From Ectothiorhodospiraceae bacterium (lineage in GTDB: Bacteria; Pseudomonadota; Gammaproteobacteria; Nitrococcales; Aquisalimonadaceae), in assembly GCA_020831885.1 (NCBI GenBank), contig JAFIFU010000007.1:1-64000 (forward strand): a DNA stretch of 64,000 nt, in the 5' to 3' direction. Position numbers and translations under genes: made by a program. Positions within the stretch are counted from its first letter, which is position 1. Each line of letters begins with the position of its first letter. Under the pieces are notes generated by a model, which worked only from the letters and a program-made list of their open reading frames with translations, searched no databases and had not been told where the DNA came from. Below, one piece after another: positions 7,611 through 40,563 of this stretch.

Positions 7611-8771
7611 ATGGCTGACGAGGCGTTCCGTGATTTCGGGCTGGGGTTTGAGCACGAGGCATTCCGTACCCAGTTCCGGCGGTTCTGCGAGGCGGAACTG
7701 CTGGACGTGGTGAAGGTTGGCGAGCAGGAAAAGCGCTTTCCGCTGGAGGTTTACGCCAAACTGCGGGATGCCGGCTATCTGGCCGTGGACATTCCCGAAG
7801 ATGTTGGAGGGGGAGGCGGCGATCTGATCATGGGCTGCCTCTTCTACGAGGAACTGACCCGAGCAGCCGCCGGCGTTTCCGCGGGCGTGTTCGCCCACCA
7901 GCATCTGGCGTGCAAGCCCATCATGCGGGCGGGTACACCGGAGCAGAAGGAGGAGTTCCTTTATCCCGCCCTGCGGGCTGAGCGGATCGGTGCCTTTGGC
8001 CTCACCGAGCCGGACGCGGGCAGCGATATCCGCGGTATTCGTACCACCGCGCGGCCGGCCGGGGGCGATTATGTGCTCAACGGCAGCAAGGTCTATATCA
8101 CCAACGGTGGCATCGCCGATTACATCCTCGTCGCGGCGCGCACCGGGGAGGAAAAACGCGGTAGCGGCAGCTTGTCCCTGTTCATCGTGGATGCGGAGGC
8201 TCCCGGTATCCATCGCTCGGAACTGGACAAAGTCGGTAATCATTCCTCGTCAACCGCATTGATCACTCTGGACAACGTGCGAGTCCCAGGCACCCGGGTG
8301 CTGGGGGAAATCGGCCGCGGACTCACGCAGCTCAAGCAAACACTCACCGAAGGGCGGATTCTGGTGGCCAACCGGGGGCTCGCCATCGGTCAGGAGGCGC
8401 TGGATCACACATTGCGTTATGCCGGCGAACGCCGGGCCTTCGGTCAGGAGATCGGCAAGTTCCAGGGTGTGGCCTTCAAGGTGGCCGATATGGCGGCCAG
8501 GGCCGATGCGGCACGGTTGATGATCTATCGCGCCGCCCGTCTGTTCATGGCGGGCCAGGAATGCACCCGTGAGGCGTCCATGGCGAAGTTGCTGGCCAGC
8601 GAACTGGCCATGCAGTCCGCCAGCACGGCGCTGCTGCTGCACGGCGGCGCAGGCTACATGGAAGAGATGAAGGTTGCGCGTCTCTATCGGGATGCGCCGG
8701 AGGCCTGGATCGGCGAGGGTCCCAATGAGATTCAGTTGATGGTCATTGCGAAATCCCTGGGGCTGCTGTGA
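7611..8771 (+). CDS. Acyl-CoA dehydrogenase (first copy)
   Basis: A 386-residue acyl-CoA dehydrogenase, an FAD enzyme that makes 2-enoyl-CoA and passes electrons to ETF. The three domains are visible: N-terminal helical (1-120), beta-barrel with FGLTEPDAGSDIRGI and YVLNGSKVYITNGG, and C-terminal helical ending in GEGPNEIQLMVIAKSLG. The C-terminal GEGPNEIQ keeps the glutamate that acts as base in the short- and medium-chain class. It opens a long same-strand operon and overlaps the next start by one base. Another acyl-CoA dehydrogenase at 28101 serves the second operon. The acyl substrate is unknown. Confidence 0.85.
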   Translation: MADEAFRDFGLGFEHEAFRTQFRRFCEAELLDVVKVGEQEKRFPLEVYAKLRDAGYLAVDIPEDVGGGGGDLIMGCLFYEELTRAAAGVSAGVFAHQHLACKPIMRAGTPEQKEEFLYPALRAERIGAFGLTEPDAGSDIRGIRTTARPAGGDYVLNGSKVYITNGGIADYILVAARTGEEKRGSGSLSLFIVDAEAPGIHRSELDKVGNHSSSTALITLDNVRVPGTRVLGEIGRGLTQLKQTLTEGRILVANRGLAIGQEALDHTLRYAGERRAFGQEIGKFQGVAFKVADMAARADAARLMIYRAARLFMAGQECTREASMAKLLASELAMQSASTALLLHGGAGYMEEMKVARLYRDAPEAWIGEGPNEIQLMVIAKSLGLL

Positions 8772-10735
8772 TGAGCCAACCCGGGCAGACAGACAGCGTC
8801 ATGGACGCGGGGGATGACACCGGATACCCGCGGTTGTATTCGCCGTTGCGGCTTGGTCGGGTCACCGTGCCGAACCGTTTCGTGGTGCCGGCACTGACCA
8901 CCAATTTTGCCGAAGCGGACGGGGTCATCGGCGACCGTTTAATCGACTACCTGGAGGCGCGCTTCGCCGGCGGCTACGGGCTGGTCGTGACCGAGAACAT
9001 CGGTGTCCATCCGTCCGGACGTGTGATGCCCCGGATGGCCATGGCCCACGACGACCGTTTCCTGGGGGGGCTTCGGCGACTGGCGGAGCGGGTCCAGGGC
9101 TACGACGGTGTGCTGTTCGGGCAGCTTAGCCACGCCGGGCGCCAGACCCGCAGCGCCATCACCGGCATGCCCCTGGTGGCCGCCTCGGCCATCCCGTGTC
9201 CGCTGAACCGGGAGGAGCCCCGGGCGCTGGAAACCCACGAAGTGGAGGACATGGAGCGCGCCTTCGTGGAGGCCGCCTGCCGCTTGGCCGAGGCCGGATT
9301 CCAGGGCGTGGAAATCCATGGCGCCCACGGTTACCTCGTTGGTGGCTTCCTGTCCCGCTATTCCAACATCAGAACAGACCACTACGGCGGTTCGTTGTCG
9401 AACCGTATGCGGTTCCTCCTGAACATTGTTGCCGGCATCAAAAGCGCCTTGGGGCAGGGTTTTCCTGTCTCCGTCCGCATCAGCGCCCGGGAGTTCGTTC
9501 CGGATGGGCTGGATCTCCCGGAGTCCATTGAGGTGGCGCGGAGGCTGGCGGACGCCGGGGTGGATGCCCTTTCCGTATCGGTGGGTGTCTATGCCTCCTT
9601 CAATCGCCTGTCAATGATCACCGGCGAGCCGGAGGGGCGTTGGCTGGATCTGGCAGGTGCCCTGCGGCGGGAGGTCTCCCCCATGCCGGTGATCGGCGTG
9701 GGCCGTATTAAACGGCCTGAGATCGCAGAGCGGGCGCTGGCAGACGGCCTGGTGGATCTGGCCGCGTTCGGGCGAGCCTCGATCGCCGATCCGCATCTTC
9801 CCCGCAAGGTGCGAGAGGCGCGGTCCGAGGAGGTGATGTGGTGCCTGGGCTGCAACGTGTGTCTGGGGCGCTCGTCCCGCCCGGAAAGTATCTGTCCGGT
9901 TAATCCCGCGGTGGGTCTCGAACGGCGCCATGTCGTCTCGCCCGCTGCGCGTCCGATGCGTGTGCGGGTCCTGGGCGCCTCGCTGTCGGCGCTGACCGCG
10001 GCCTGGATTGCGGCTCGCCGTGGGCATCAGGTCACCGTAACGACTCCCGGCGGTGTACTGGGCGGCATGCAGCGCTGGCGTGCCGGGGTTCCCGGTCAGG
10101 AGGAATACGAGGAAGTGATTGCCGCAGCGCATCGCCGTGCTGCGGGGGTCGGTGTCCGGTTTGCGGACTGGGTTCCGTCGTCCCGGGTCGATGCGACCTG
10201 GCGGGTTCACAACTATCAACCGGTGGATGACGCCTTGCTGCAGCGGCATACCGACGCAGTGGACGTTTACCGGGTGCTCTCCGGTGATGTGGCGCCAGGG
10301 GCCGGTGAACGGGTTCTGGTTTACGGCGCCGACCTGGCGACGGTGGAGGCGGGAGCGCTGCTGCGGGCTGCCGGTTGCGAGGTGCGATTGCGCGTGCCGG
10401 CGCGGGATGTGGCGTTGGATGCGCACCCCGGCTACCGGGAGGCCAACCGGCAGCTGCTGGAGACGCGCCGGGTGGATTTGCGGATCGCCCGCGATATCGA
10501 CGGCTTGGAAGCCGGGGACATCCGCTGGGCGGATCACATCGTTATCGGAGATACAGGGAAGCCCCGTTACGAGGATCCGGCGGCCTGGAGGGAGTCGGCG
10601 GTACATGCAGGGGAACCCACGGAGTCGGTGCGTGCCGACGCGGTGCTGGCGGATGCCTATGAGCCCGGTCTGATGACCCGTGGGATCTACGACGCCGTTG
10701 ACATGGCGCTGGAATTCGAGGGCCAGCCTCAGTGA
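8771..10735 (+). CDS. Old-yellow-enzyme / 2,4-dienoyl-CoA reductase-like FMN-FeS protein
   Basis: A 654-residue member of the 2,4-dienoyl-CoA reductase group. Residues 20-345 form the FMN-binding TIM barrel (GQLSHAGRQTR at 118-128, EIHGAHGYLVGGFLSRYSN at 181-199). Cysteines 358, 361, 364 and 375 are placed to hold a [4Fe-4S] cluster. Residues 396-654 form a pyridine-nucleotide-disulfide-type domain, but its dinucleotide motif reads GASLSAL instead of GxGxxG, so NADPH or FAD binding there may be weak. Such enzymes reduce conjugated double bonds or cleave activated C-N or C-O bonds. ATG 8771 overlaps the previous stop; a GTG three bases earlier is also possible. Confidence 0.8.
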   Translation: MSQPGQTDSVMDAGDDTGYPRLYSPLRLGRVTVPNRFVVPALTTNFAEADGVIGDRLIDYLEARFAGGYGLVVTENIGVHPSGRVMPRMAMAHDDRFLGGLRRLAERVQGYDGVLFGQLSHAGRQTRSAITGMPLVAASAIPCPLNREEPRALETHEVEDMERAFVEAACRLAEAGFQGVEIHGAHGYLVGGFLSRYSNIRTDHYGGSLSNRMRFLLNIVAGIKSALGQGFPVSVRISAREFVPDGLDLPESIEVARRLADAGVDALSVSVGVYASFNRLSMITGEPEGRWLDLAGALRREVSPMPVIGVGRIKRPEIAERALADGLVDLAAFGRASIADPHLPRKVREARSEEVMWCLGCNVCLGRSSRPESICPVNPAVGLERRHVVSPAARPMRVRVLGASLSALTAAWIAARRGHQVTVTTPGGVLGGMQRWRAGVPGQEEYEEVIAAAHRRAAGVGVRFADWVPSSRVDATWRVHNYQPVDDALLQRHTDAVDVYRVLSGDVAPGAGERVLVYGADLATVEAGALLRAAGCEVRLRVPARDVALDAHPGYREANRQLLETRRVDLRIARDIDGLEAGDIRWADHIVIGDTGKPRYEDPAAWRESAVHAGEPTESVRADAVLADAYEPGLMTRGIYDAVDMALEFEGQPQ

Positions 10736-10809
10736 CGGGGAAGAGCGAATCCGGTCCGGTGCAGCCGGCCGGGGCAGCGGGGAGTTGCCAGTTGACCGGT
10801 TCTGGTGCG

Positions 10810-10831: not shown

Positions 10832-11022
10832 GGGTACAGCATCCTTTCCTGATGCCCGGCCCTTCCCGTGATCCCCGGCGGCGGCGCCCTGTTGCGCAGC
10901 GGCGTGACAAAACAGCGACTTTTTCCTTGCGTGCACGGATCGAAAGCCGTGCCGCCGGGAGGGTAAGAGAGGTCAGCAGCCGTACGCCGGTCGCTGCGTC
11001 TATGTGAGGAGGAGAGATAGTG

Positions 11023-12192
11023 ATGAGAAAATCGATTCAGGCAGGGGTGATTGCCGTCGCGGGGCTTGCCGCTTTCGGTAGCTTTCAGGCCAGCGCGGAT
11101 GAGGTCCTGACCATTGGTGTGGTCAGTGCGCTGGAGGGGCCCGGTTCGGAATGGGGCCGGGGTGTGGATGGTGGCACCAGGATCGCCGCCAAGGAGATCA
11201 ACGAGGCCGGCGGTCTGACCGTCAACGGCACGACGTATCAGATCCGGGTTCGTTCCTACGATGATGGTTACGCGGCGGCCCGCGCCGTTGCCGCCGTGAC
11301 CCGGCTGATTGAGCAGGACCGGGTCAATTTCGTACTCGGGCCGCTTGGTTCCGGTGCTGCCCTCGCGGTCAAGCCCATGTACGAGGAGCATGGCATTCTC
11401 GCACTGGTGAACAGCTACACGCCGGAGACGCTGGCGGACAATCCCCAGTACACCTACCGTGTGCTGCCAACCACTGCGGAATATGTGGGGCCGATCGTGG
11501 GGTGGATCAACGAAAACCACCCGGATATCCAGCGGGTGGCCATCATTTCGCCCAACGATCAGACCGGCTGGGATAGCCAGAAGAGTCAGGTGGCCACCTA
11601 TGAAGAGTTCGGGTACGACATCGTCGGTACCGAGCTCTTCGAGCGTGCCACCCGGAACTTTCAGCCGTTCGTGACGCGGATTATGGCCCAGCAGCCGGAT
11701 CTGATCGAGCTCGATACCACGCCGCCGGGCACCGCCGGGCTGATTATCCGGCAGGCCCGGGAAATGGGCTATCAGGGGATGTTTTCCAAGATCGGCGGTC
11801 CGGGTGTGCCGGAGATCGTGGATGCCGCCGGCAAGGAGTTTGCGGAAGGCACCGTCGTCTACGTTGCCGCCGACACGGAAAATCCCAAGTACGCGGAAAT
11901 GGAGGAGGCTTACGCTGAGATCTATCCGCCGCCCATGAACGCCTTCAACGTCTTCTTCTATGACGCTGCCCACATGCTTTTCGAGGCCATGCAGCGTGCC
12001 GGCACCGTCGAGGACGTCGAAGCGGTGCGTGCCGAACTCCTCGCGATGGCCCCGTACGAGGGCATGCAGGGCACCCTGGTCTGGGGTGGCGAGGAGCTTT
12101 ACGGTAACAACAATCAGCTCCAGACGCCGACGTTCGTTGGTCTGATCCAGGACGGTAAAGAGGTGATCGTGGACCGGATCGCCGTGGAGTAA
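11023..12192 (+). CDS. ABC transporter substrate-binding protein (LivK-like, family 6 periplasmic)
   Basis: A 389-residue periplasmic binding protein of the branched-chain amino-acid/amide/aromatic-acid type. A signal peptide covers about residues 1-26 (short basic start, hydrophobic core, cut after ASA before DEV). The mature protein opens with LTIGVVSALEGPGSEWGRGV, typical of the family. ATG 11023 lies 8 nt after AGGAGGAG. It is the ligand-capturing part of the Liv-type importer that follows, and in this catabolic context it may bind a carboxylic acid instead of an amino acid. A strong hairpin follows it, so it is probably made in excess over the membrane parts. Confidence 0.9.
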   Translation: MRKSIQAGVIAVAGLAAFGSFQASADEVLTIGVVSALEGPGSEWGRGVDGGTRIAAKEINEAGGLTVNGTTYQIRVRSYDDGYAAARAVAAVTRLIEQDRVNFVLGPLGSGAALAVKPMYEEHGILALVNSYTPETLADNPQYTYRVLPTTAEYVGPIVGWINENHPDIQRVAIISPNDQTGWDSQKSQVATYEEFGYDIVGTELFERATRNFQPFVTRIMAQQPDLIELDTTPPGTAGLIIRQAREMGYQGMFSKIGGPGVPEIVDAAGKEFAEGTVVYVAADTENPKYAEMEEAYAEIYPPPMNAFNVFFYDAAHMLFEAMQRAGTVEDVEAVRAELLAMAPYEGMQGTLVWGGEELYGNNNQLQTPTFVGLIQDGKEVIVDRIAVE

Positions 12193-12200
12193 ACGCGGGA

Positions 12201-12234: not shown

Positions 12235-12267
12235 CTGGTCGCGCCCTGCACAACGTCGGTGAGTAAC

Positions 12268-13128
12268 ATGCTCCAGCTAACTATACAGATCGCAGTGAAC
12301 GGTCTGACGTTTGGCCTGATTTACATCCTGATGGCTCTCGGATTCACGCTGATTTTCGGCATCATGCGTGTGGTGAACTTTGCTCATGGCGAGTTCTACA
12401 TGGTGGGTGCCATCGGTATCCTGCTCCTGTTCGGAACTCTTGGATTCAATTACTACCTGTCCATTGTCTTCGCGGTGCTGTGCGTTGGCCTGTTGGGCGT
12501 TATCGTGGAGCGGGTCCTGCTCCGCGGTTTTGTCGGCCGCGAACTGAATTCCATGATCATGGCCCTGGCCGTGGCCATCACGCTGCAGGCACTCGCGGCC
12601 ATCCTGTTCGGCCCCCAGGAGCAGTCCGTTGCCCGGCCTGTCACCGGGGTGCTGCAGGTGGCCGGTGTCTTCATTCCCCGTGACCGGATCGTGGTGGGGG
12701 TGATTGCCCTGGCGGTGCTGATCGCCTTCTATCTGTTCCTCCGCTATGCCCGTTACGGGCTGGCGATGCGGGCTGTCGCCCAGGATCCGGCCGCCGCTGC
12801 GCTGCAGGGCATTCGGCCCGGGTTCATCTACAGCCTGGCATTCGGTGTCGGCAGCCTTCTGGCCGGCCTGGCCGGCGCCCTCATGGCTCCGGTCTACACG
12901 ATCTCGCCGTTCATGGGTGATGTTCCCATGATGATGGCCTTCATCGTTGTCATCCTCGGTGGGTTGGGCAGCATTCCGGGTGCCGTTGTCGGTGGATTGT
13001 TGCTGGGATTCGTGGAGTCCCTGTTCTCCACCTTCTTCGGTTCGACGATTGCCACCATGATCGCCTTCGGGATGGTGGTGCTGATACTGCTCTTCAAACC
13101 GAGTGGACTGATGGGGCGGGCACAATGA
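12268..13128 (+). CDS. livH: Branched-chain-type ABC permease LivH
   Basis: An inner-membrane permease of 286 residues from ATG 12268; a GTG at 12259 would add three residues. The typical LivH start NGLTFGLIYILMALGFTLIF and IMRVVNFAHGEFYMVGA are present, followed by about eight hydrophobic segments and the EAA-like loop near FIVVILGGLGSIPGAVVGG. It pairs with LivM to form the channel for the ligand delivered by the upstream binding protein. Its stop overlaps the LivM start (ATGA). Confidence 0.9.
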   Translation: MLQLTIQIAVNGLTFGLIYILMALGFTLIFGIMRVVNFAHGEFYMVGAIGILLLFGTLGFNYYLSIVFAVLCVGLLGVIVERVLLRGFVGRELNSMIMALAVAITLQALAAILFGPQEQSVARPVTGVLQVAGVFIPRDRIVVGVIALAVLIAFYLFLRYARYGLAMRAVAQDPAAAALQGIRPGFIYSLAFGVGSLLAGLAGALMAPVYTISPFMGDVPMMMAFIVVILGGLGSIPGAVVGGLLLGFVESLFSTFFGSTIATMIAFGMVVLILLFKPSGLMGRAQ

Positions 13129-14105
13129 CGATGAGAAGCGTACTCCTGGCACTGGGTTTCGTTGCGATCGTGGTATGGCCATTTCTGGTGGACAACACGT
13201 TCTACACCCATATCGGTGTTTCCGTCTGGATGTTCACGATCCTGGCGCTGAGCATGAATCTCATGCTGCGGATGGGCCAGCTCTCCCTGGCGCACGGCGC
13301 GATCATGGGGCTGGGCGCCTACACCGCGGCGCTGCTCATGCTGCGTCTGGATGTCCCGTTTCTTCCGGCTTTCATCTGTTCCGGTCTGGTGGGGGCGCTC
13401 GTGGCCGCCATTACCGGTCCCGTGATGTTGCGGGTGAAAGGCGTGTATTTCGTCCTGCTCACGTTCGCCTTCGGTGAGATCATCGTTCTGATGTTCATTG
13501 ACTGGGTCAGCCTGTTCGGTGGTCACAATGGCATTTTCGGCGTGCCCAGGGCCGAACTTTTCGGCTTCGTGTTACGCGATCGCTCATACAGCTATCTGTT
13601 CGCCTTGGGGCTGGCGGCCCTGGCCTACCTGATTCTGCGCTGGATTTACAGCACGGAAACCGGTGCGGTCATCGACGCCCTGCACGATGACGAGGATCTC
13701 GCCCGTTCCCTGGGTGTGAACGCCCTGGGCTACCGCATTGGCATTTTCATTGTCAGCGGTTTCATGGCGGGGATCGCCGGTGGCTTTTACGCCAGCTATT
13801 TCACGTTCGTGACGCCGGAATCGTTCACCTTCTGGACAGCGGTGGATGCCCTGGTGATGAACATCCTCGGCGGCATCGCCCTCCCCCTCGGCGCTGTGAT
13901 CGGGGCCGTCATGTTGGTGCCGTTACCGGAGTTGCTGCGGGATAGCCAGGAATACCAGATTCTCTTCTATGGTCTGATCCTGATTTTCTTCCTGAAATTC
14001 CTGCCGGACGGCGTTGTGGGTGTCATAAAGTCTCTGAGCACCGATTCCAGCCGTAGTCTGGGCAAGCGATTCATGAAGATCCTGGCCTGGAGGCAAGTGA
14101 AATGA
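13125..14105 (+). CDS. livM: Branched-chain-type ABC permease LivM
   Basis: A 326-residue second permease of the importer, with 8-10 membrane segments. Family landmarks are LSMNLMLRMGQLSLAHGAIM (about residues 41-60), GVYFVLLTFAFGEIIVLMF in the middle, and the EAA-type loop around NILGGIALPLGAVIGA. It begins by a four-base overlap with livH and ends by a four-base overlap with livG, showing tight translational coupling. Confidence 0.9.
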   Translation: MTMRSVLLALGFVAIVVWPFLVDNTFYTHIGVSVWMFTILALSMNLMLRMGQLSLAHGAIMGLGAYTAALLMLRLDVPFLPAFICSGLVGALVAAITGPVMLRVKGVYFVLLTFAFGEIIVLMFIDWVSLFGGHNGIFGVPRAELFGFVLRDRSYSYLFALGLAALAYLILRWIYSTETGAVIDALHDDEDLARSLGVNALGYRIGIFIVSGFMAGIAGGFYASYFTFVTPESFTFWTAVDALVMNILGGIALPLGAVIGAVMLVPLPELLRDSQEYQILFYGLILIFFLKFLPDGVVGVIKSLSTDSSRSLGKRFMKILAWRQVK

Positions 14106-14861
14106 GTGGATTGCTGGAAGCCAAAGGTCTGGTGAAACGGTTCGGCGGGCTCAGCGCTGTCGATGACGTGAGTTTTTCCACCGGGGAGAGGGAGATTCTC
14201 GGCGTTATCGGCCCCAACGGTGCGGGCAAGAGCACCCTGTTCAATCTGATCACCGGGACGATTCCCATTACCGCGGGTACGGTGCATTTCGACGGGAAGG
14301 ATATCACCGGGCTTAAACCCGAACAGGTGGCCAATCTGGGTATCGTGCGGACCTTCCAGGCCGCCACGGTGTTCACCGAAAAGACGGTGCAGGAAAATAT
14401 CCGCATCGGTTACCAGTTCAATCAACTGGGACGGCCCACGTCGCTGTTCAACCGGCGGCGGGTAAAGGAGTTTCGCCGGAAGGCGGAATCGTTGGTGACC
14501 GAGGTCCTTGACTTCGTTCAACTGACATCCTACCGGGACCGGGCCGCCGGCGAGCTCTCCTACGGTCGGCAGAAAGTTCTGGGTGTGGCCATGGCACTGG
14601 CCGCGGGTCCCCGCCAGTTGCTCATGGACGAGCCGGCCGCCGGGCTCAATGCGGTGGAAACCGAGAGGATGGGGCAGCTCATAAAACTCATCCGTGACGT
14701 GAAAGGAATCGATGTGGTCCTGGTGGAGCACGATATGGCCATGGTCACCAGCGTCTGCGACCGGATTCTGGTCATCGACCGGGGGCGGCTCATTGCGGAA
14801 GGGTCTCCGGAAGAGATTCAGCAGAATCCGGATGTCATCGAAGCCTATCTGGGGGTCGACC

Positions 14862-14875
<14 letters not shown>
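14102..14875 (+). CDS. livG: Liv-type ABC ATPase LivG
   Basis: A 257-residue ATP-binding subunit. It has Walker A GPNGAGKST, the LivG-type insertion with FQAATVFTEKTVQENI, a signature-like motif AAGELSYGRQKVLGVAMAL, Walker B LLMDEPAAGLN and the H-loop VLVEHDMAMV. The signature reads ELSYGRQ, which is usual for LivG proteins. It energises transport with LivF on the cytoplasmic face. Its last 14 bases overlap the start of livF. Confidence 0.92.
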
Positions 14876-15577
<702 letters not shown>

Positions 15578-15581
<4 letters not shown>

Positions 15582-16387
15582 GTGGCCAGCAATGGACAGC
15601 ATCGGGTTCAGACGACATCTTGCCCACACAGCTGCGGGATGGGGTGTTAACCGTCACCATCAACCGGCCGGAGCGCCGGAATGCCCTGTCCGTGGAACTG
15701 GCAAACCGGTTGCATGCGCTCTGGGAGGCAGTGGATGCCGATGACGCCGTGAACGTGGTGGTTTTGACCTCCGCTGACTGCGGCACGTTCTGCGCCGGCA
15801 TGGATCTGAAGGAGGCGGCGGAGATCCGGGAGCGGGAAGGCCGGGATGTGCTGACGCTGATCAAGGATCCTTTTCACCAACGCATGCGCTCGGTACGCAA
15901 GCCCATCATCGCGGCCATGACAGGCCACTTTGCCGCCGGCGGCATGATGCTGACCCTGAACGCCGATCTGCGCGTGGGCCTGGCGGGGACGCGCGGCGGC
16001 ATCACCGAATCCAAGATCGGCCGTGGTTCTCCCTGGGGGGTGCCCCTGCTCTGGATGCTGCCGCAGCCGGTGCTCATGGAGATGACCCTCTGCGGCGAGA
16101 TGTTCCCCATCGAACGGCTCCAGGCGTTGGGGCTGGTGAACTACGTGGAGCCGACCCCGGACGCGGTCCGCGAGCGGGCGCAGGCACTTGCCGGGAACAT
16201 CTGCGGCAATGCGCCCCTGTCTGTCCGCGCCGGCAAGGCGAGCATTCTCAATGCCATGAACGTGGGCTGTGAGCAGGGGTTGAAGGATGCCGCCCGGATC
16301 TATGAGCCCGTTTACCGGAGCCGGGACGCCCAGGAAGGGCCGCGTGCGTTCGCCGAGAAGCGCGCACCGGAGTGGAAGGGATGTTGA
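15578..16387 (+). CDS. Enoyl-CoA hydratase/isomerase family protein (first copy)
   Basis: A 269-residue crotonase-fold protein. Visible are TVTINRPERRNALSVEL near the N-terminus, the oxyanion-hole loops CGTFCAGMDLKEAAE and IAAMTGHFAAGGMMLTLNAD, and a glutamate-bearing segment GGITESKIGRGSPWGVP. It would hydrate or isomerise an enoyl-CoA. It overlaps livF by four bases, so transport and metabolism are co-expressed. A second crotonase in this window (29263) belongs to the atu-like operon, and the two are not close paralogues by eye. Confidence 0.82.
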
Positions 16388-29255: not shown

Positions 29256-29262
29256 GGGCACG

Positions 29263-30036: not shown

Positions 30037-30087
30037 ATCACGCCTCCGTGCGCGCGATTGCCAAGCCTAACGATACAGGTGAAAGCC

Positions 30088-31455: not shown

Positions 31456-31457
31456 TC

Positions 31458-31775: not shown

Positions 31776-33379
31776 TGGCCGTACTGCAGTCCCGTGTTGA
31801 TGTGGGCGGCGAGGCCTTCCGGGCCAATGCCGAGGCGTACGGGCGCATGCGGGCGGAGATCGCCGCAGCGCGGGACATGGCCGTGACCGGCGGCGGAGAC
31901 CGTGCGCGGGAGGTTCACGCCTCCCGGGGCAAAATGATGCCCCGGGAACGGATTTCCGCCCTGTTGGACATGGGTACCCCGTTTCTGGAAATCGGCCAGC
32001 TCGGCGGCCACGGCCTGTACGATGACGACATCCCCAGCGGCGGCATCATCACCGGCGTGGGCGTCGTGTCCGGCCGCGCCTGCGTGGTGGTGGCCAACGA
32101 TGCCACCGTCAAGGGCGGTACCTACTACCCCATCACCATCCGCAAGCACATCCGTGCCCAGCAGGTGGCCCGGGAGAACGGGCTGCCCTGCATCTATCTG
32201 GTGGACTCCGGTGGCGCCTTTCTGCCCCTGCAGGAGGATATCTTCCCGGACGAGCATCACTTCGGCCGGATTTTCCGGAATATCGCCGAAATGTCCGCCA
32301 TGGCTCTGCCGCAGATCGCGGTTGTGATGGGCTCGTGCACGGCGGGCGGTGCGTATATCCCGGCAATGTGCGACGAGACCATCATCGTCAAGGATAACGG
32401 CACGATTTTCCTGGGTGGCCCGCAACTGGTGAAGGCCGCCACCGGCGTCGAGGTGGACGCCCAGACCTTGGGCGGTGCCGACGTGCATACCCGTGACAGC
32501 GCGGTGGCTGATCATTACGCCGTGGACGAACGCCACGCGCTGTCCCTGGTACGCGAGATTGTCGCCCGGGAGCCCGGTGCGGCACCTGTCGGTCCGCCGC
32601 TCCTGCCGGAAGACCCGCTGTACGATCCCGCCGAACTTCCGGGCATCATCAGCGCCAACCCGCGTGAGCCCATTCCCGCCCGGGAGATCCTGGCGCGGCT
32701 GCTGGATGGCAGCCGGCTGACGGAATACCGGGAGCGCTGGGGCAACACCATCATCTGCGGTACCGGCGCCATCGGCGGATTTCCGGTGGGTGTGCTGATC
32801 AACGATGGTGTGCTGTTTGCCGAGAGCGCCCAGAAGGCCGCGAACTTCATTGAGATCTGCTGCCAGCGGGACATCCCGCTCCTGTTCCTGCACAACATCA
32901 GCGGTTTCATGGTGGGCCAGGAGTACGAGGCGGGCGGAATCGCCCGCCATGGAGCCAAGATGGTCAGCGCCGTCTCCTGTGCCCGGGTGCCCAAATACAG
33001 TCTGCTGATCGGTGGCAGTTATGGTGCCGGGAACTTCGCCATGTGTGGCCGCGCCTTCGGGCCGCGGCTGATGGGTATGTGGCCTAATGCCCGCACTGCG
33101 GTCATGGGTGGCGAGCAGGCCGCAACCGTGCTTTCGCTGGTGCGGGAGTCCCAACTCGCCAAACAGGGCAAGCCTTTTTCCAGTGAGGAGGTGGAGGCCT
33201 TCAAGCAGCCCATCCGGAATACCTATGAACGGAGCAGCCATCCGCTCAACGCTGCCGCCAACATGTGGGTGGACGCCGTGGTGGATCCGGAGGATACCCG
33301 GGCCTGGCTGGCACTGGCACTTGCCCTGGCGGCGGGTTCGCCGAAGGACGACACGCGCTTCGGCGTGTTCAGGATGTAA
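31775..33379 (+). CDS. Biotin-dependent acyl-CoA carboxylase, carboxyltransferase (beta) subunit, atuC-like
   Basis: A 534-residue carboxyltransferase with N- and C-terminal crotonase-like halves. Visible are MPRERISALLDMGTPFLEIG, CIYLVDSGGAFLPLQEDIFP, MGSCTAGGAYIPAMCDE, and in the second half LFLHNISGFMVGQEYEAGG and SYGAGNFAMCGRAFGPR with MWPNARTAVMGGEQAA. These features match geranyl-CoA and 3-methylcrotonyl-CoA carboxylases. It transfers CO2 from biotin to the gamma carbon of a 3-methyl-2-enoyl-CoA. The neighbouring AtuA genes favour the geranyl-CoA type, but leucine-type activity cannot be excluded. Confidence 0.87.
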   Translation: MAVLQSRVDVGGEAFRANAEAYGRMRAEIAAARDMAVTGGGDRAREVHASRGKMMPRERISALLDMGTPFLEIGQLGGHGLYDDDIPSGGIITGVGVVSGRACVVVANDATVKGGTYYPITIRKHIRAQQVARENGLPCIYLVDSGGAFLPLQEDIFPDEHHFGRIFRNIAEMSAMALPQIAVVMGSCTAGGAYIPAMCDETIIVKDNGTIFLGGPQLVKAATGVEVDAQTLGGADVHTRDSAVADHYAVDERHALSLVREIVAREPGAAPVGPPLLPEDPLYDPAELPGIISANPREPIPAREILARLLDGSRLTEYRERWGNTIICGTGAIGGFPVGVLINDGVLFAESAQKAANFIEICCQRDIPLLFLHNISGFMVGQEYEAGGIARHGAKMVSAVSCARVPKYSLLIGGSYGAGNFAMCGRAFGPRLMGMWPNARTAVMGGEQAATVLSLVRESQLAKQGKPFSSEEVEAFKQPIRNTYERSSHPLNAAANMWVDAVVDPEDTRAWLALALALAAGSPKDDTRFGVFRM

Positions 33380-35396: not shown

Positions 35397-36584
35397 ATGC
35401 AGGGTTCCGGATCCAGCCTCTCCTCGGCGCTGACGCTACGTTCCGTCACGCTCAAGAACCGCCTGGCCGTCTCGCCCATGTGCCAGTATTCGGCCACCGA
35501 CGGCGTCGCGGATGACTACCATCTGGTGCACCTGGGCCGGTTCGCTCTTGGCGGCGCCGGGCTGGTGTTCGTGGAAGCCACGGCCGTGGTGCCCGAGGGG
35601 CGGATCACCCATGGTGATCTGGGGTTGTGGCGTGATGACCAGATACCGGGGCTCAGGCGCATCGCCGGGTTTCTGAGCGCGCACGGCGCGGTGCCGGCCA
35701 TCCAGCTCGCCCATGCAGGCCGCAAGGCCAGCATGCAGCGCCCCTGGAACGGTAATGGTCCTCTCAACGATGACGATGTGCGACGCGGCGATCGGCCCTG
35801 GGAGATCGTGGGACCCAGTCCCGTGCCGGTGGACGAGGGCTGGCTCGTTCCCCGTGAGATGACGCCCGGTGACATGGCCGCGCTGAGGGATGCCTGGTGC
35901 CAGGCGGCCCGACGCGCGCTTGATGCCGGTTTCCAGGTGCTGGAGGTCCATGCGGCGCACGGGTACCTGCTGCACAGCTTTCTCTCGCCCCTCAGCAACC
36001 GGCGTACCGATGCCTACGGCGGCGATCTGGAGAGCCGCTGCCGCTTCCCGCTGGAGGTGGTGGAAGCGGTGCGCGCCGTCTGGCCGGAGGACAAGCCCCT
36101 GTTCGTCCGGGTGTCCGCCGTGGACGGCATGGAGGGTGGCTGGGAACTGGATGATACGGTGTACCTGGCGCGCAGGCTCAAGGCGCTGGGCGTGGATGTG
36201 GTGGATTGCTCCTCCGGCGGGCTGGCGGGCTCCGCCACGGCGGCGCGGGTGCGCCGCGGCCCCGGGTTCCAGGTGCCGTTCGCCGCGCGGGTCCGGGAGG
36301 ACGCGGATATGGCCACCATGGCCGTGGGTCTGATCCTGACGCCCCGGCAGGCGGAAGAGGTGGTGCGTGGCGGCCAGGCGGACATCGTTGCCATTGGCCG
36401 GGAGGCCCTGTTCAACCCCAACTGGCCGGTCCATGCGCTGGGGGAGCTGGATGAGAAATCCGGTTTCGAGCCCTGGCCGGTGCAGTCGGGTTGGTGGCTG
36501 GAAAATCGCGACCGGGCGTTGACCCGGCTGGGCATCCGGCAGACGCCCGTCTCCAGCCTCTGGGATATTGAAGGTGTGGACTAG
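35397..36584 (+). CDS. NADH:flavin oxidoreductase, YqjM-type old-yellow enzyme
   Basis: A 395-residue FMN TIM-barrel enzyme from ATG 35397. The thermophilic-like/YqjM class is indicated by Cys29 (SPMCQYSA), AIQLAHAGRKAS (101-112), His185 and His188 (VHAAHGYLLHSFLSPLSNRR), and the C-terminal IGREALFNPNWP. It reduces activated C=C bonds such as enones of terpenoids or xenobiotics. The first old-yellow enzyme (8771) has an extra FeS/Rossmann half, so the two are not redundant by design. It follows the carboxylase after 31 nt. Its stop codon joins a repeat core. Confidence 0.85.
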   Translation: MQGSGSSLSSALTLRSVTLKNRLAVSPMCQYSATDGVADDYHLVHLGRFALGGAGLVFVEATAVVPEGRITHGDLGLWRDDQIPGLRRIAGFLSAHGAVPAIQLAHAGRKASMQRPWNGNGPLNDDDVRRGDRPWEIVGPSPVPVDEGWLVPREMTPGDMAALRDAWCQAARRALDAGFQVLEVHAAHGYLLHSFLSPLSNRRTDAYGGDLESRCRFPLEVVEAVRAVWPEDKPLFVRVSAVDGMEGGWELDDTVYLARRLKALGVDVVDCSSGGLAGSATAARVRRGPGFQVPFAARVREDADMATMAVGLILTPRQAEEVVRGGQADIVAIGREALFNPNWPVHALGELDEKSGFEPWPVQSGWWLENRDRALTRLGIRQTPVSSLWDIEGVD

Positions 36585-36617: not shown

Positions 36618-37520
36618 TCAGATCAATGCGATCGGTCGGACCGGGCTGCCCGTGGCGCCGGCGAAGCGGGCGGGCAGCATGATGAAGCAGAAGGGTGTCG
36701 TTACCGAAGCCGTCAGTCCGTCCAGTGCCAGATTCTCGATCAGATACACACCGCGGTCCACCAGGGCGTGCTGGTGGACGGGCATGGACACCTCGCGGTC
36801 GACGCCGGGCAGTACCTCCACGGCCATGTTGTCCGAGCCGATCGCGTACACGCCCTGGCCCGTCAGCCACTGCGCCGCGTCCAGGTCGATACCCGGCTCG
36901 CCCGCGGTGTAGCGGGCATTGTCGCGCATATAGTGGCGGCTCCAGCCGGTGCGGATCAGGACCGTATCGCCGGGTTGGATGGTGATTTCCTGCTGGTTCA
37001 GCGTCTGCTGCAGATCATCCGCGCTGACAGCACGTCCCGCCTCCAGGTGATCACCGCCGTCAAGCCCCGCGACATCAATGCAGATGCCCCGGGTGATCAG
37101 GCTGGGGACGTGTTCCACCCCCAGCCGGCGTAATCCCTGGTTGCCCACGATCTCCGCGGCGCTGTGGCCGCCGTACATACGGTCTCCCACCGAGAAGTGA
37201 CCCAGTGCGTCCACGTGCGTGCCCACGTGAAAGGTCATGTGCACATGTTCCAGGTTCACGCCGGGATCGTTGCGGACCCCCTGACCGCGCACCGCCCGGA
37301 TAACCCGGTCGGCGGTGCTCCAGAAGCTCATCAGAAAGGGCGGCTGAATGCGCTCCCAGAAAGGTGCGCCGGCCTTGATGGGGTGGTCCAGCTCGAACAG
37401 CCGGCCCTCGCGAATCAGGGACAGGGCGGCCAGTCGCGATGCGTTCGTTTGACCGCCACCGGCGCCGATCTGGTCACCGGGGGCGGGCGGAAAATGCACG
37501 GCGGGATCGTCTGCCATCAC
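36618..37520 (-). CDS. Cyclase-family hydrolase (PF04199, kynurenine formamidase-like), first copy
   Basis: A 300-residue protein of the metal-dependent cyclase/kynurenine formamidase family. The metal-site motif is FHVGTHVDALGHF, with His98, His102, Asp104 and His108. A second conserved block is GDTVLIRTGWSRHYM, and the C-terminus ends in the family segment ATGSPVRPIALI. Members hydrolyse amides, lactones or cyclic diketones. Its stop is 34 nt from that of the old-yellow enzyme (convergent). The DUF169 gene lies 2 nt upstream on the same strand. It may open a ring in the pathway encoded nearby. Confidence 0.8.
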   Translation of the reverse strand: MMADDPAVHFPPAPGDQIGAGGGQTNASRLAALSLIREGRLFELDHPIKAGAPFWERIQPPFLMSFWSTADRVIRAVRGQGVRNDPGVNLEHVHMTFHVGTHVDALGHFSVGDRMYGGHSAAEIVGNQGLRRLGVEHVPSLITRGICIDVAGLDGGDHLEAGRAVSADDLQQTLNQQEITIQPGDTVLIRTGWSRHYMRDNARYTAGEPGIDLDAAQWLTGQGVYAIGSDNMAVEVLPGVDREVSMPVHQHALVDRGVYLIENLALDGLTASVTTPFCFIMLPARFAGATGSPVRPIALI

Positions 37521-37522: not shown

Positions 37523-38317
37523 TTAGCTGTTGCCGTAACTGGCGGCCAGGCCCTCGGCCGGGTCGGCGCTGGCGCTGAACGGTGAAATGGGGTAACGCAG
37601 CCCCGCCTTGTAAAGGCCTTCCAAGCCCTCCACCCCCCGGGCCAGTTCCTCCGGTGGCAGGGCCATGAGCAGTTCGTCATCGGCAACACCGCCGTAGCGC
37701 CGCTCAGCGTAGCAAGGGATTGACAGGCTGGTTTCCCGGGTGGCCAGCGCCCGACCCCAGGAATCGGCGCAGGCACTTTCCCCGGTGATGGTGAAATCGT
37801 AGCGCCGATAGGTTTTCCATTGCAGGCCGTTGATGAACAGGATCATCTGGCCCGGTGTGGCGTAGAACAGGCAGATGTCGGGTGGATCCAGGCGACCCAT
37901 GCGCAGTGGCGAGACGGCCAGCCCCTGATAGCGGCCGGCTGGAACCCGTGGCATCTGTTCCTGATGCTTTTTCGATGCCTCCAGGTTTTCGAACCAGACG
38001 CGGTGGAACTTGCGTCCGGACAGGTAATCCTCGCCAGGGGCGTTGAGGCCCACCACGCCGCCGCAGTTGGAGTTGGGCAGGACGTTCTCGTGCTGGATCC
38101 CCAGGGTCAGCCCGGCCATGCGGGCCTGGGTGACGAGCTGGCAGGTGGAGTGGCGGCGTCCCTCCTTTGGGTGCCGCAAGCCAGGAACCTGCGCCATCTG
38201 CTCCAGGTCCTCGAACAATTTCATGCCGATCGGCAAGGTCCGCAGGCGCAACAGCTCGGTGAGTCGCCCGGACAGGCGTTTCAACTCGGCAGCATCGACT
38301 CCACTTTGATCAGTCAT
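37523..38317 (-). CDS. DUF169 family protein
   Basis: A 264-residue protein of the DUF169 family from the Met at 38317, six bases after a GGGAG ribosome binding site; two earlier in-frame ATGs are less well placed. The family pattern is LRLRTLPIGMKLFEDLEQM, an invariant-looking CQLVTQAR segment, and NCGGVVGLN, with a later ESACADSWGRAL. Several conserved cysteines suggest metal or cofactor binding. The function is not known. It is the upstream partner of the cyclase-family gene, with only 2 nt between them. Confidence 0.72.
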   Translation of the reverse strand: MTDQSGVDAAELKRLSGRLTELLRLRTLPIGMKLFEDLEQMAQVPGLRHPKEGRRHSTCQLVTQARMAGLTLGIQHENVLPNSNCGGVVGLNAPGEDYLSGRKFHRVWFENLEASKKHQEQMPRVPAGRYQGLAVSPLRMGRLDPPDICLFYATPGQMILFINGLQWKTYRRYDFTITGESACADSWGRALATRETSLSIPCYAERRYGGVADDELLMALPPEELARGVEGLEGLYKAGLRYPISPFSASADPAEGLAASYGNS

Positions 38318-38737
38318 GCACATCTCCCGACATTTTCGCTCGTGCGAGCCCGGTGTCATTGACCGGGTGATTCCGCCTCATCCCCGGAGCAGGCTCAGTC
38401 CATTATCCGGAGTTTATCAGCCGGATATATACTATGAAATAGTGTTCTGCAATGTGATACATCTTCCTTGCTAGGACACGGCGCTCCTGCCTGCGGTCGG
38501 AGGGGATTTGCCGAAGCGGACCGCGCCGGAGGTGCACAGCAATCGAACATGCTTCGCATGGTAAAATTCCCGCTTTGATTCCGTGGGGCGTGACCCGGCA
38601 GTGCTGAGCCGGTGAAACTGACGGAGTGCATCGCGATTTCCTGCGCGGTCGGCCTGCCCGGACGATACGGCTGGGAGAAGCGCCACAGAGGGTCATGTGC
38701 AACCGTGACAGCAACAGTAGGCAGCGGAGAGACCGGG
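38318..38737. other. Intergenic region between DUF169 and GntR genes
   Basis: This 420-bp stretch separates two divergent transcripts. No convincing gene is seen. It is AT-richer near 38400-38470, where ACTATGAAATAGT (38431-38443) makes a short dyad next to TATATACTATG. The dyad could belong to a promoter or operator for the GntR protein. The remainder is GC-rich without repeats that I can recognise. Confidence 0.4.
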
Positions 38738-39409
38738 GTGAGTTCTGGCTCGAGAAAGACATCACGGGCGCAGTGGGTTTACGATGCGCTGCGCGCCGCT
38801 ATTGGTGAGGGCAGGTTCCGCAGTGGCGAACGTATCCTTGAAGAAGAGGTGGCCCGTTCGCTTGGCGTCAGTCGGACCCCGGTTCGTGCCGCGCTCTCGC
38901 GCCTCCAGTCCCAGGGGCTTCTGGAGCTGGCTCCAGGAGGGCTGGTCGTTGCCCGGCTGAGTCGCCCCCAGGTGTTGGAGCTTTATGCCATGCGGGAGAT
39001 CCTCGAGGGGTCCGCCGCCCGTTTTGCGGCGCAGCATGCATCCCCGTCCGAAATCGCGAGTCTGTATACGCTGGCGGATGCCTTTTCCCGATCCATGGGT
39101 GATCCGGACCGGCTTGCCCGTATCAACCGGGAGTTCCACGGCGCCATCTATGAGGCCGCGCATAACCGTTACCTGTTGCGTACCCTGAGTGAGCTGCAGG
39201 ATGCGCTGACCCTGTTGCCGGGCACCACATTCACGGTCAATGGCAGGCCCGAAGCGTCGGTCATGGAGCACGGGAGCATCGTTGCCGCCATTGAAGGCCG
39301 CGATCCCGACGCCGCCGAGCGCGCCGCCCGGCATCACATCCGCAAGGCGCAGGAGGCGCGATTGGAAATGATGATATTCTCTCCAGGGGGGGTGGCGATC
39401 GACGAGTAG
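38738..39409 (+). CDS. GntR family regulator, FCD subfamily
   Basis: A 223-residue GntR/FadR-type regulator from the GTG at 38738, preceded by GGAGAG; the upstream open frame has no conserved residues. The winged helix reads VYDALRAAIGEGRFRSGERI, LEEEVARSLGVSRTPVRAAL and LSRLQSQGLLELAPGGLVV. The FCD helical domain holds the metal-site pattern ALEM-like start YAMREILEGSAARFAA, then NREFHGAIYEAAHN and a histidine in ERAARHHIRKA. It precedes the second cyclase-family gene by 104 nt and probably controls the local cyclase/DUF169 genes. Confidence 0.85.
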   Translation: MSSGSRKTSRAQWVYDALRAAIGEGRFRSGERILEEEVARSLGVSRTPVRAALSRLQSQGLLELAPGGLVVARLSRPQVLELYAMREILEGSAARFAAQHASPSEIASLYTLADAFSRSMGDPDRLARINREFHGAIYEAAHNRYLLRTLSELQDALTLLPGTTFTVNGRPEASVMEHGSIVAAIEGRDPDAAERAARHHIRKAQEARLEMMIFSPGGVAIDE

Positions 39410-39513: not shown

Positions 39514-40563
39514 ATGACGGCACGATGGACACGGCGACCCGACGGGTCCAACTGGGGTGATTTCGGTCCCGATGATCAGATTGGTCGTCTGAATTATCTT
39601 ACCCCGGCGAAGGTGCGGGAAGCGGCAGGGGAGATACGGGAGGGTCTGGTGTTCCCGCTCAGTCTCCCGCTTGATTATCCCGGCGGTAACGTGCTGAATC
39701 CGAACCGCCTGCCTCCCATTCTCAGACCGAGCCTGCGTGATGGCGAGGTCAATATGAATTTCGATTTCCGCAAGAAAAATGCCGATTCCAAAGATGTGCT
39801 GTCCGATGATTTGGCAATACTCCACTTGCAGTATTCCACCCAGTGGGACGCCTTGAGTCACGTTGGTTCCAGGTTCGATGTTGACGGTGCCGGAGTTGAA
39901 AAACCGGTTTACTACAACGGTTTCGCGGCGGGGGAGGATGTGGTGGGCCCGACCTCGACGGATGACTGCGGGCTGGTGGGTAACGTCGGCATGAGCAGCA
40001 CTTCAGGTGCCAAGGCGCTGGGGATTGAAAACATGGCGGCCGCCGGCGTTCAGGGCGTCGGGGTAATGATCGACCTCCGTCACCATCTCGGCGATGCTAG
40101 GACGGTGGTGGGTTATGATCAGCTCATGCGTATCCTGGAATCGGACGATGTCTCTGTGGAAAAGGGCGATATGGTTTGTTTCCATACCGGTCTTGCAGAT
40201 CTCATTCTGGGGATGAAAAAACACCCTGATCCGGCGACGCTTGCAAGCAGTTGTGCCGTATTGGACGGGAATGACCGCAAGTTGTTGAACTGGATAACGG
40301 ATTCCGGGCTTGCAACGATTGTGGCGGACAATTACGCCGTTGAGGATTTCCCCAGCAGCCTGCCGAACACCTCGTGCTCCATACTGCCATTGCATCATCA
40401 TTGCCTGTTCAAGCTGGGGATTCACCTTGGGGAACTCTGGCATCTGACACCGCTTGCAGAATGGTTGCGTCAGGCAGGGCGATCAAGGTTTTATCTCAGC
40501 GCTCCTCCGTTAAGGCTGCCCGGTGCGGTGGGATCCCCCGTGTCGCCGGTTGCAGTGGTCTGA
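39514..40563 (+). CDS. Cyclase-family protein, second copy (TQWDALSH subgroup)
   Basis: A 349-residue cyclase-family protein, longer than the first. Its metal-site block reads LQYSTQWDALSHVG (residues 105-118), so the two leading histidines of HxGTHxDxxxH are Gln106 and Gln110, while Asp112 and His116 remain. Gln and Trp here define a recognised subgroup. GDMVCFHTGLADL and a C-terminal AVGSPVSPVAVV are conserved. Its codons are visibly more AT-rich than those of its neighbours, hinting at separate acquisition. The ATG follows a region with no strong ribosome binding site. Confidence 0.75.
   Translation: MTARWTRRPDGSNWGDFGPDDQIGRLNYLTPAKVREAAGEIREGLVFPLSLPLDYPGGNVLNPNRLPPILRPSLRDGEVNMNFDFRKKNADSKDVLSDDLAILHLQYSTQWDALSHVGSRFDVDGAGVEKPVYYNGFAAGEDVVGPTSTDDCGLVGNVGMSSTSGAKALGIENMAAAGVQGVGVMIDLRHHLGDARTVVGYDQLMRILESDDVSVEKGDMVCFHTGLADLILGMKKHPDPATLASSCAVLDGNDRKLLNWITDSGLATIVADNYAVEDFPSSLPNTSCSILPLHHHCLFKLGIHLGELWHLTPLAEWLRQAGRSRFYLSAPPLRLPGAVGSPVSPVAVV

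What the first reader, a model, noticed from the sequence alone, without database searches (positions are those of the whole stretch)
7611..40563. Large two-operon catabolic region with an atu-like core and extra ring- or lactone-opening enzymes
Seen in sequence: a same-strand run with acyl-CoA dehydrogenase, OYE/FeS reductase, a full Liv-type importer, crotonase, SCP2-like/hydrolase, flavin dehydrogenase, aldehyde dehydrogenase, lactonase and beta-hydroxyacid dehydrogenase, followed by IclR pairs and an atu-like operon, then two cyclase-family proteins and DUF169. Known: AtuA, AtuC/F-type carboxylase, ligase, dehydrogenase and hydratase form the acyclic terpene (citronellol/geraniol) route. 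Inference: an extended isoprenoid, terpenoid or branched-ring pathway with its own importer, of which the first and last blocks are not part of the classic atu set.
Basis: partly seen in the sequence, partly recalled or inferred. Interest (0 to 1): 0.72.

Follow-up and report, generated by a model that had tools for sequence, protein, structure and literature searches.

The report
Atu-like carboxylic-acid breakdown gene cluster
About thirty neighbouring genes appear to import and break down an unidentified branched or ring-shaped carboxylic acid; they resemble the bacterial geraniol pathway but use a different carboxylase and a two-part AtuA protein, and most of the same genes sit together in a distantly related marine bacterium.

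Summary
The halves belong together: about 44 kb of one Roseovarius contig holds 23 of the 29 genes at about 51% identity or more, importer, ACAD1-OYE, DUF169 and lactonase/ALDH genes included. It is not the citronellol/geraniol pathway: the genome has a canonical atu locus and a leucine-type carboxylase elsewhere; the window carboxylase forms a third clade and keeps the small-pocket Phe of methylcrotonyl-CoA carboxylase. AtuA models onto a solved citramalate lyase subunit, CmlA (Z 32.1 over 420 residues). Best reading: acid import, CoA ligation, dehydrogenation, gamma-carboxylation, hydration, then cleavage by AtuA plus small subunit with loss of acetate. All catalytic steps and the substrate are inferred. 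Window-type AtuA was not found in 58 other sampled relatives, while close matches occur in other classes and on plasmids, so horizontal spread is likely. A new variant of a known pathway kind.

The parts
7611..8771 (+). ACAD1, acyl-CoA dehydrogenase
   Evidence: Pfam PF00441/02770/02771; 68% to Roseovarius contig
8768..10735 (+). OYE, long Oxidored_FMN protein with FAD region (BaiCD / mycofactocin OYE_2 type)
   Evidence: PF00724 222 bits; TIGR03997 381 bits, below its cut-off of 793; 54% in Roseovarius
11020..12192 (+). Liv-type substrate-binding protein
   Evidence: PF13458; 69% in Roseovarius
12259..13128 (+). LivH permease
   Evidence: PF02653; 67%
13125..14105 (+). LivM permease
   Evidence: PF02653; 63%
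14102..14875 (+). LivG ATPase
   Evidence: PF00005, PF12399; 61%
14865..15581 (+). LivF ATPase (exact start uncertain)
   Evidence: PF00005; 67%
15578..16387 (+). ECH1, crotonase-family enzyme that recurs with this AtuA
   Evidence: PF00378; 63-70% copies in 8 of 8 loci with AtuA at 66-68%
16422..17666 (+). ABH, PcaD-like alpha/beta-hydrolase with an N-terminal part that is a separate ORF in several relatives
   Evidence: PF00561; NCBIfam PcaD-type hits below cut-off; two-ORF relatives
17760..19268 (+). TcuA-like FAD dehydrogenase
   Evidence: PF00890; NF006130 608 bits, cut-off 369; only 34% in Roseovarius
19268..20719 (+). aldehyde dehydrogenase
   Evidence: PF00171; 57% in Roseovarius
20748..21737 (+). 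SMP-30/gluconolactonase-like protein
   Evidence: PF08450; 55% in Roseovarius
21748..22668 (+). 3-hydroxyisobutyrate-dehydrogenase-like oxidoreductase
   Evidence: PF03446, PF14833; 60% in Roseovarius
22839..23660 (+). IclR-family regulator 1
   Evidence: PF01614, PF09339; IclR pairs near AtuA in 8 of 8 close loci; 45% in Roseovarius
23675..24625 (-). IclR-family regulator 2
   Evidence: PF01614, PF09339; 48% in Roseovarius
24915..25712 (+). SDR1 (best NCBIfam match 2,4-dienoyl-CoA reductase, below cut-off)
   Evidence: PF13561; NF005811 279 bits, cut-off 318; 75% in Roseovarius
25709..26449 (+). SDR2
   Evidence: PF13561; 65%
26533..28104 (+). acyl-CoA ligase (AtuH-like position)
   Evidence: PF00501; 57%
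28101..29255 (+). ACAD2, acyl-CoA dehydrogenase (AtuD-like position)
   Evidence: PF00441; 79%
29242..30036 (+). ECH2, enoyl-CoA hydratase family (AtuE-like position)
   Evidence: PF00378; 67%
30058..31455 (+). AtuA without its C-terminal domain; CmlA-like fold
   Evidence: PF07287 447 bits; model pLDDT 87; 9evf E 2.3e-26, Z 32.1
31452..31775 (+). separate AtuA ferredoxin-like small subunit
   Evidence: PF23544 82.7 bits; 70% in Roseovarius
31775..33379 (+). carboxyltransferase beta, third clade beside MCC and GCC rows
   Evidence: PF01039
33383..35365 (+). biotin carboxylase / biotin carrier alpha subunit
   Evidence: PF02786, PF00289, PF02785, PF00364; 54%
35397..36584 (+).
   Evidence: PF00724 225 bits; 63% to Roseovarius OYE2
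36618..37520 (-). cyclase-family protein A
   Evidence: PF04199 107.7 bits; 51% in Roseovarius
37523..38359 (-). DUF169 protein
   Evidence: PF02596 141.5 bits; 74% in Roseovarius
38612..39409 (+). GntR/FCD regulator
   Evidence: PF00392, PF07729; no kept match in the Roseovarius stretch
39514..40563 (+). cyclase-family protein B, divergent
   Evidence: PF04199 36.5 bits, cut-off 23.1; no kept match in the Roseovarius stretch

Best explanation
A single, probably horizontally acquired catabolic gene set imports a small branched or alicyclic carboxylic acid and degrades it as CoA thioesters. Core steps: the Liv importer brings in the acid; the ligase makes the thioester; an acyl-CoA dehydrogenase makes the 2-enoyl-CoA; the biotin carboxylase pair (a third clade of the MCC/GCC lineage) carboxylates the gamma carbon; a crotonase hydrates the product to a tertiary 3-hydroxy-3-alkylglutaryl-CoA-type compound; AtuA with its separate small subunit, working like citramalate lyase CmlA, cleaves it with loss of an acetate unit and leaves a 3-oxoacyl-CoA. 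ACAD1, the two OYE proteins and SDR1 would deal with further double bonds; ABH, SMP-30-like, TcuA-like, ALDH and HIBADH-like enzymes would feed in a lactone- or aldehyde-derived acid. Shown: gene content, conservation as one cluster, carboxylase clade and pocket residues, AtuA fold match. Inferred: every catalytic step, their order and the substrate class.
For: Roseovarius contig: 23 of 29 genes at about 51% or more between 41956 and 86229, against at most 37% in the 27 kb before it. ECH1 and an IclR pair near AtuA in 8 of 8 close loci. Carboxylase clade of seven rows, 100/100, apart from the MCC and GCC rows; the length and Phe that mark MCC in Jurado 2015 (PMC4673880, passages) are in the window enzyme, the Phe in 6 of 7 clade rows. 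AtuA model on 9evf, citramalate lyase-ADP-pyruvate complex; profile match to 9erq, CmlA, E 6.4e-7. The known atu chemistry removes acetate, a step that one paper gives to AtuA (PMC4847356, passages). None of the 29 proteins matched an HMG-CoA-lyase Pfam domain, whereas a Paracoccus liu-type operon has that gene beside its carboxylase.
Against: AtuA and the carboxylase are separable: Cupriavidus and Paraburkholderia plasmids have AtuA, small subunit and ECH1 without a carboxylase hit in 37 kb, and a Pantoea plasmid has a third-clade carboxylase without AtuA in the 20.6 kb read. TcuA is only 34% in Roseovarius and 36-37% in the two plasmid modules; ABH, GntR and CycB have no kept match on the Roseovarius stretch. 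A 2014 review gives the acetate lyase step to LiuE (PMC4097962, passages). A fold match at 18% identity does not prove activity, and nothing I saw says whether CmlA itself releases acetate or acetyl-CoA.
Confidence: 0.5

Rival explanations
1. Alicyclic or cyclic-monoterpenoid acid ring-cleavage pathway: ACAD1 plus OYE act like the MrcB/MrcC pair of the limonene island, the cyclase-family or hydrolase proteins open the ring, and the carboxylase/AtuA part finishes the branched chain.
For: An acyl-CoA dehydrogenase next to a 2,4-dienoyl reductase also occurs in the C. defragrans mrc cluster, where an mrcC mutant lacked growth on limonene (PMC4109377, passages); two cyclase-family proteins and a PcaD-like hydrolase are present here.
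Against: No C. defragrans sequence could be compared; ring-opening BadI/BadK-type enzymes were not tested for; the resemblance is at family level only.
Confidence: 0.25
2. A second leucine/isovalerate-type (liu) pathway that uses 3-methylcrotonyl-CoA itself, with AtuA in place of HMG-CoA lyase.
For: MCC-type Phe and length; 585-672 bits to MCC-type structures.
Against: The genome already has a carboxylase scoring 903 bits to the MCC structure 3u9r; the window enzyme is in another clade with 15 fixed differences from the three rows taken as MCC; importer, two OYE and lactonase-like genes are not needed for leucine.
Confidence: 0.12
3. Two or three unrelated operons that lie side by side, with the lactonase/TcuA block independent of the rest.
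For: A block of ABH, Liv importer, ALDH, SMP-30, HIBADH-like and TcuAB stands without AtuA on a Martelella plasmid and beside an AtuA of another subfamily on a Palleronia plasmid; in two beta MAGs ABH, HIBADH-like and a Liv importer lie on another contig than AtuA; TcuA is only 34% in Roseovarius.
Against: HIBADH-like, SMP-30 and ALDH relatives at 55-60% lie about 17-19 kb from DUF169 on the same Roseovarius contig.
Confidence: 0.09
4. The classical citronellol/geraniol Atu pathway with extra genes.
For: Same set of protein families as atuA-H.
Against: A canonical atu locus (fused AtuA, carboxylase with 623 bits to 5ikl) is on contig C117; the window carboxylase lacks the GCC signature.
Confidence: 0.04

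Closest known systems
Atu (acyclic terpene utilization) operon of Pseudomonas
   Same: Same protein families: AtuA, two SDRs, ligase, acyl-CoA dehydrogenase, hydratase, two-subunit carboxylase.
   Different: Carboxylase is not GCC-type; AtuA is split in two genes and lies on a different branch from the genome's fused AtuA; importer, ACAD1, two OYE, DUF169, cyclases and lactonase-like block are extra; a canonical atu locus exists elsewhere in the genome.
Liu (leucine/isovalerate utilization) operon
   Same: MCC-like carboxylase pocket; dehydrogenase, carboxylase, hydratase logic.
   Different: Separate carboxylase clade; no HMG-CoA lyase domain among the 29 proteins; AtuA present.
Citramalate lyase CmlA (PDB 9erq, 9evf)
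   Same: Same whole-chain fold as the window AtuA model (Z 32.1, 420 residues).
   Different: 18% identity; substrate of the window AtuA unknown; I saw only the PDB names and titles of CmlA, no paper.
Monoterpene island / mrc cluster of Castellaniella defragrans
   Same: Island of acquired genes; acyl-CoA dehydrogenase next to a 2,4-dienoyl reductase.
   Different: C. defragrans has no atuC/atuF homologues (PMC4109377, passages); BadI/BadK-type genes were not tested for here.
TcuA tricarballylate dehydrogenase
   Same: NCBIfam equivalog model passed (608 against 369 bits).
   Different: No TcuB recognised among the window proteins scanned; 63-67% relatives sit in varied contexts, several with PrpF, MmgE/PrpD or LeuCD genes.

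Membership tests
Atu pathway | AtuA-family protein with carboxylase, ligase, dehydrogenase, hydratase and SDR genes together | tested here: met
   Pfam
Atu pathway | Geranyl-CoA-type carboxylase: Gly in place of Phe191 and no three-residue insertion | tested here: not met
   Window Phe163 aligns with human MCC Phe191 and the loop has MCC length; rule from PMC4673880 passages. The matching PaGCC Gly counted as 161, one off the published 162
Atu pathway | Carboxylase beta groups with canonical AtuC | tested here: not met
   Third clade 100/100; 436 bits to 5ikl against 585-672 to eight MCC-type chains
Atu pathway | AtuA fused to its ferredoxin-like domain, as in the genome's own atu locus | tested here: not met
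   Window split into 30058-31455 and 31452-31775; C117 copy fused
Liu pathway (MCC) | Carboxylase beta inside the MCC group | tested here: not met
   three rows taken as MCC: C29, L086 (liu-type operon), L087 (unannotated record)
Liu pathway (MCC) | HMG-CoA lyase in the operon | tested here: not met
   No HMGL-like Pfam domain among the 29 proteins
MCC/GCC lineage of acyl-CoA carboxylases | Carboxylase beta in the MCC/GCC branch, far from other carboxyltransferases | tested here: met
   585-672 bits to MCC-type chains, 436 to GCC, 251 or less to the next, PCC-like, chains
CmlA-type citramalate lyase | CmlA fold along the whole chain | tested here: met
CmlA-type citramalate lyase | Citramalate cleavage activity | not testable with these tools
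   No assay possible
TcuA | Passes the NCBIfam TcuA equivalog cut-off | tested here: met
   608 against 369 bits
TcuA | TcuB electron-transfer partner next to it | tested here: inconclusive
   None recognised among the window proteins scanned; no dedicated TcuB search was made
mrc-type ring cleavage | BadI/BadK/BadH-type ring-opening enzymes | not tested
   No reference sequences at hand; only family-level crotonase and SDR matches

The most novel reading that the evidence does not exclude
A previously undescribed mobile degradation pathway built on a third lineage of gamma-carboxylating acyl-CoA carboxylase, in which AtuA plus a separate small subunit acts as a CmlA-like acetate-releasing lyase in place of HMG-CoA lyase, coupled to a dedicated importer and a lactone-processing module; AtuA would then be a general lyase for tertiary hydroxy acids, not a terpene-specific protein.
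Probability: 0.4. Interest if true: 0.7.

Novelty: new variant of a known kind. Interest (0 to 1): 0.55.

Why it matters
118 plasmid records hold an AtuA relative at E 1e-60, and most of those listed with an annotation are named 'acyclic terpene utilization AtuA'. If AtuA proteins of this kind are acetate-releasing lyases, that label misleads, and the open 'LiuE or AtuA' question of the atu pathway becomes testable by expressing two genes. The third carboxylase clade gives a defined enzyme whose substrate would reveal a branched-acid route other than the leucine and geraniol pathways.

Tried and rejected
Geraniol/citronellol assignment: rejected on the carboxylase signature, its clade and the genome's own atu locus. 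Leucine pathway: disfavoured by the separate MCC-like carboxylase. Composition: G+C of the blocks (0.62-0.68) does not stand out from the flanks (0.64-0.66), so it gave nothing. Empty site: of seven relatives searched, five have an HDOD match; in the two whose 19-kb stretches I read, an HDOD/GGDEF pair stands without any cluster gene, but the upstream flank was not found there, so no clean empty site was shown. OYE and ACAD1 against plasmids: no match at E 1e-80. DUF169 structure from a single sequence: pLDDT 31, useless, no fold search made. PDB search with the AtuA small subunit: no match. The AtuA Foldseek and VIA lists hold no other whole-chain match; that absence is no evidence about other families. 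Organism: 16S was found in 2 of 6 genomes searched, not in the own one; that of a same-order genome has its 25 listed plasmid matches in gammaproteobacteria (Methylomagnum 89%, Halomonas and Legionella 86%) and 86% to E. coli, so the class is inferred. Paper searches: searches showed no paper on CmlA or on this cluster among their listings; one search was swamped by Portuguese words and says nothing; subscription journals and preprints are not held.

Rows dropped or limits: trees used one best hit per locus, at least 400 (carboxylase) or 350 (AtuA) residues long; four duplicate carboxylase rows and near-identical AtuA rows were removed, though L016 and L036 are both the window AtuA. In the carboxylase tree the MCC-plus-GCC group has only 83/89 and a long GCC branch; the separate window clade has 100/100. 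tblastn tables keep only the best query per place, so weaker overlapping matches are hidden. The region of the Roseovarius contig compared was 14000-88000.
Full report
OBSERVATION. The open frames listed were scanned in Pfam and NCBIfam. Two genes were not in its list: a second old-yellow-enzyme protein at 35397-36584 and a short gene at 31452-31775 with the AtuA ferredoxin-like domain (PF23544). I count 29 genes in the finding. The 'SCP2-like' part of the hydrolase has no Pfam match at E 0.001; in several relatives that part is a separate open frame beside the hydrolase.

DO THE HALVES BELONG TOGETHER? The AtuA protein was used to fetch relatives (13 loci, 3 of them at 60% identity or more; 118 plasmid records, 5 at 60% or more). 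These eight close loci were read with the window proteins. In the Roseovarius locus the ACAD1-OYE pair of the first block runs into SDR1-SDR2-ligase-ACAD2-ECH2-AtuA-small subunit-carboxylase pair, then OYE2 and DUF169. Reading further along the same contig, the stretch 41956-86229 holds ECH1 67%, CycA 51%, SBP 69%, LivH 67%, LivM 63%, LivG 61%, LivF 67%, ACAD1 68%, OYE 54%, SDR1 75%, SDR2 65%, ligase 57%, ACAD2 79%, ECH2 67%, AtuA 67%, small subunit 70%, CT 72%, BC 54%, OYE2 62%, DUF169 74%, HIBADH-like 60%, SMP-30 55% and ALDH 57%: 23 of 29 genes. IclR1 and IclR2 are at 45% and 48%, TcuA at 34%; ABH, GntR and CycB have no kept match. Controls in the same call: the 27 kb before this stretch have 13 kept hits of at most 37%, and of nine window genes outside the finding that were tried, none was kept. 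A same-order relative of the window genome has a 16S closest to gammaproteobacterial records, whereas Roseovarius is alphaproteobacterial, so the shared cluster very likely crosses classes.

CORE AND MODULES. In 8 of 8 close loci an ECH1 relative at 63-70% lies near AtuA (about 16 kb away in Roseovarius), and an IclR pair at 30-51% is present (in L089 the IclR2 match is in pieces). The two Achromobacter plasmids L057 and L089 are nearly alike, so about seven loci are independent. A carboxylase pair accompanies AtuA in 5 of these 8 (L003, L012, L057, L060, L089; in L089 the alpha subunit is in two pieces) and was not seen in L004 (only about 4 kb read downstream), L058 and L059. Liv importers also lie near AtuA in L057, L058 and L059, but at 27-45% identity. 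A block of ABH, importer, ALDH, SMP-30, HIBADH-like and TcuAB stands without AtuA on a Martelella plasmid and next to an AtuA of another subfamily on a Palleronia plasmid; their TcuA is only 36-37% to the window's. Both beta MAGs with close AtuA carry ABH (68-69%), HIBADH-like (52%) and a Liv importer (36-50%) on another contig. ABH relatives lie in benzoate/catechol clusters and beside a muconate cycloisomerase, which fits a lactone hydrolase.

THE CARBOXYLASE. In one search the genome's best matches to the window carboxyltransferase are one on C29 (57%; 903 bits to the P. aeruginosa MCC structure 3u9r) and one on C117 (42%; 623 bits to the geranyl-CoA carboxylase structure 5ikl), the contig that also carries the fused AtuA; the rest are at 32% or less. 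The window protein scores 585-672 bits to eight MCC-type chains (five deposited as MCC; the top one, 9tps, is deposited as propionyl-CoA carboxylase, but it also scores 886 bits with the C29 enzyme) and 436 to 5ikl. In an 18-row tree the window clade of seven rows has 100/100; beside it a weaker group (83/89) holds three rows taken as MCC and two GCC rows. By the published rule (PMC4673880, passages) MCC has Phe191 preceded by a three-residue insertion and GCC has Gly; the window enzyme has the Phe (its residue 163; the human chain counts exactly 191) and MCC length, and 6 of 7 clade rows have the Phe (Ile in the Pantoea row); 15 positions are fixed in the clade and differ from the three MCC rows. 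A small substituent next to the carboxylated carbon is therefore predicted, not a geranyl chain.

ATUA. The model made from 14 aligned relatives has mean pLDDT 87 and pTM 0.85. Its one strong solved match is 9evf, a citramalate lyase complex with ADP and pyruvate (Foldseek E 2.3e-26; Z 32.1, rmsd 3.3, 420 residues; the next, single-domain, match has Z 9.6). The same chain, named 'Acyclic terpene utilization AtuA family protein / Citramalate lyase, subunit A (cmlA)', is found by sequence profile (9erq, E 6.4e-7). In the printed alignment several residues invariant among the window's relatives recur in CmlA, among them GR..D, EC and YE..DP. I saw no paper on CmlA; the older, clostridial citramalate lyase makes pyruvate and acetate, and a DUF1446 gene of unknown function was noted beside the enterobacterial methylaspartate genes (PMC4682846, passages). 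The Atu pathway removes acetate from 3-hydroxy-3-isohexenylglutaryl-CoA; one paper lists AtuA for this step among enzymes 'characterized or tentatively identified' (PMC4847356, passages), a review gives it to LiuE (PMC4097962, passages). The CmlA match favours a lyase role for AtuA. That the window AtuA does this is inference.

SPREAD. In one search none of the 58 relatives other than the own genome has an AtuA above 37% identity (five have one at 37%). At E 1e-100 it is found in 1 of 369 genomes of the class (the own genome) and in 3 of 398 of the phylum draw, the other two at 38% and 44%. Five of the eight close loci are plasmid-borne, but they come from a search of a plasmid collection, so that share says only that plasmids can carry it. 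Together this fits horizontal acquisition; base composition does not show it.

VERDICT. A real, conserved and probably horizontally moving catabolic gene set; it resembles Atu and Liu in logic but is a member of neither by the tests above. The substrate is unknown.

Noticed in passing
G000 contig C117 (L044, 1-20000): A canonical atu locus in the same genome: fused AtuA, GCC-type carboxylase, biotin carboxylase, ligase, SDR and dehydrogenase relatives.
   Followed up: partly
window 16422-17666: The hydrolase and its N-terminal part are one protein here but two neighbouring open frames in several relatives; possible gene fusion.
   Followed up: partly
L058, L059, L062, L088: AtuA with its small subunit occurs without a carboxylase hit, in L062 and L088 next to TAXI-type TRAP transporters, which suggests a wider AtuA role than terpenes.
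   Followed up: partly
L013, L014, L008, L010: AtuA relatives at 40-52% with the separate small subunit in Dehalococcoidales, Desulfosporosinus and Thermodesulfobacteriota MAGs.
   Followed up: no
L065 (Pantoea agglomerans plasmid), 8945-18567: A third-clade carboxylase pair without AtuA in the stretch read, near fadA- and 3-hydroxyacyl-CoA-dehydrogenase-type genes, with Ile where the clade has Phe.
   Followed up: partly
window 48487-50805: Large protein with peroxidase domains (PF00141, two stretches) near the cluster.
   Followed up: no
window 44631-46685: NicO nickel-transport-like protein next to a DUF1007 protein.
   Followed up: no
G000:C76:64001-104000 (L045, L046): Weak SDR, SMP-30-like and acyl-CoA dehydrogenase hits downstream on the same contig, perhaps another catabolic region.
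   Followed up: no
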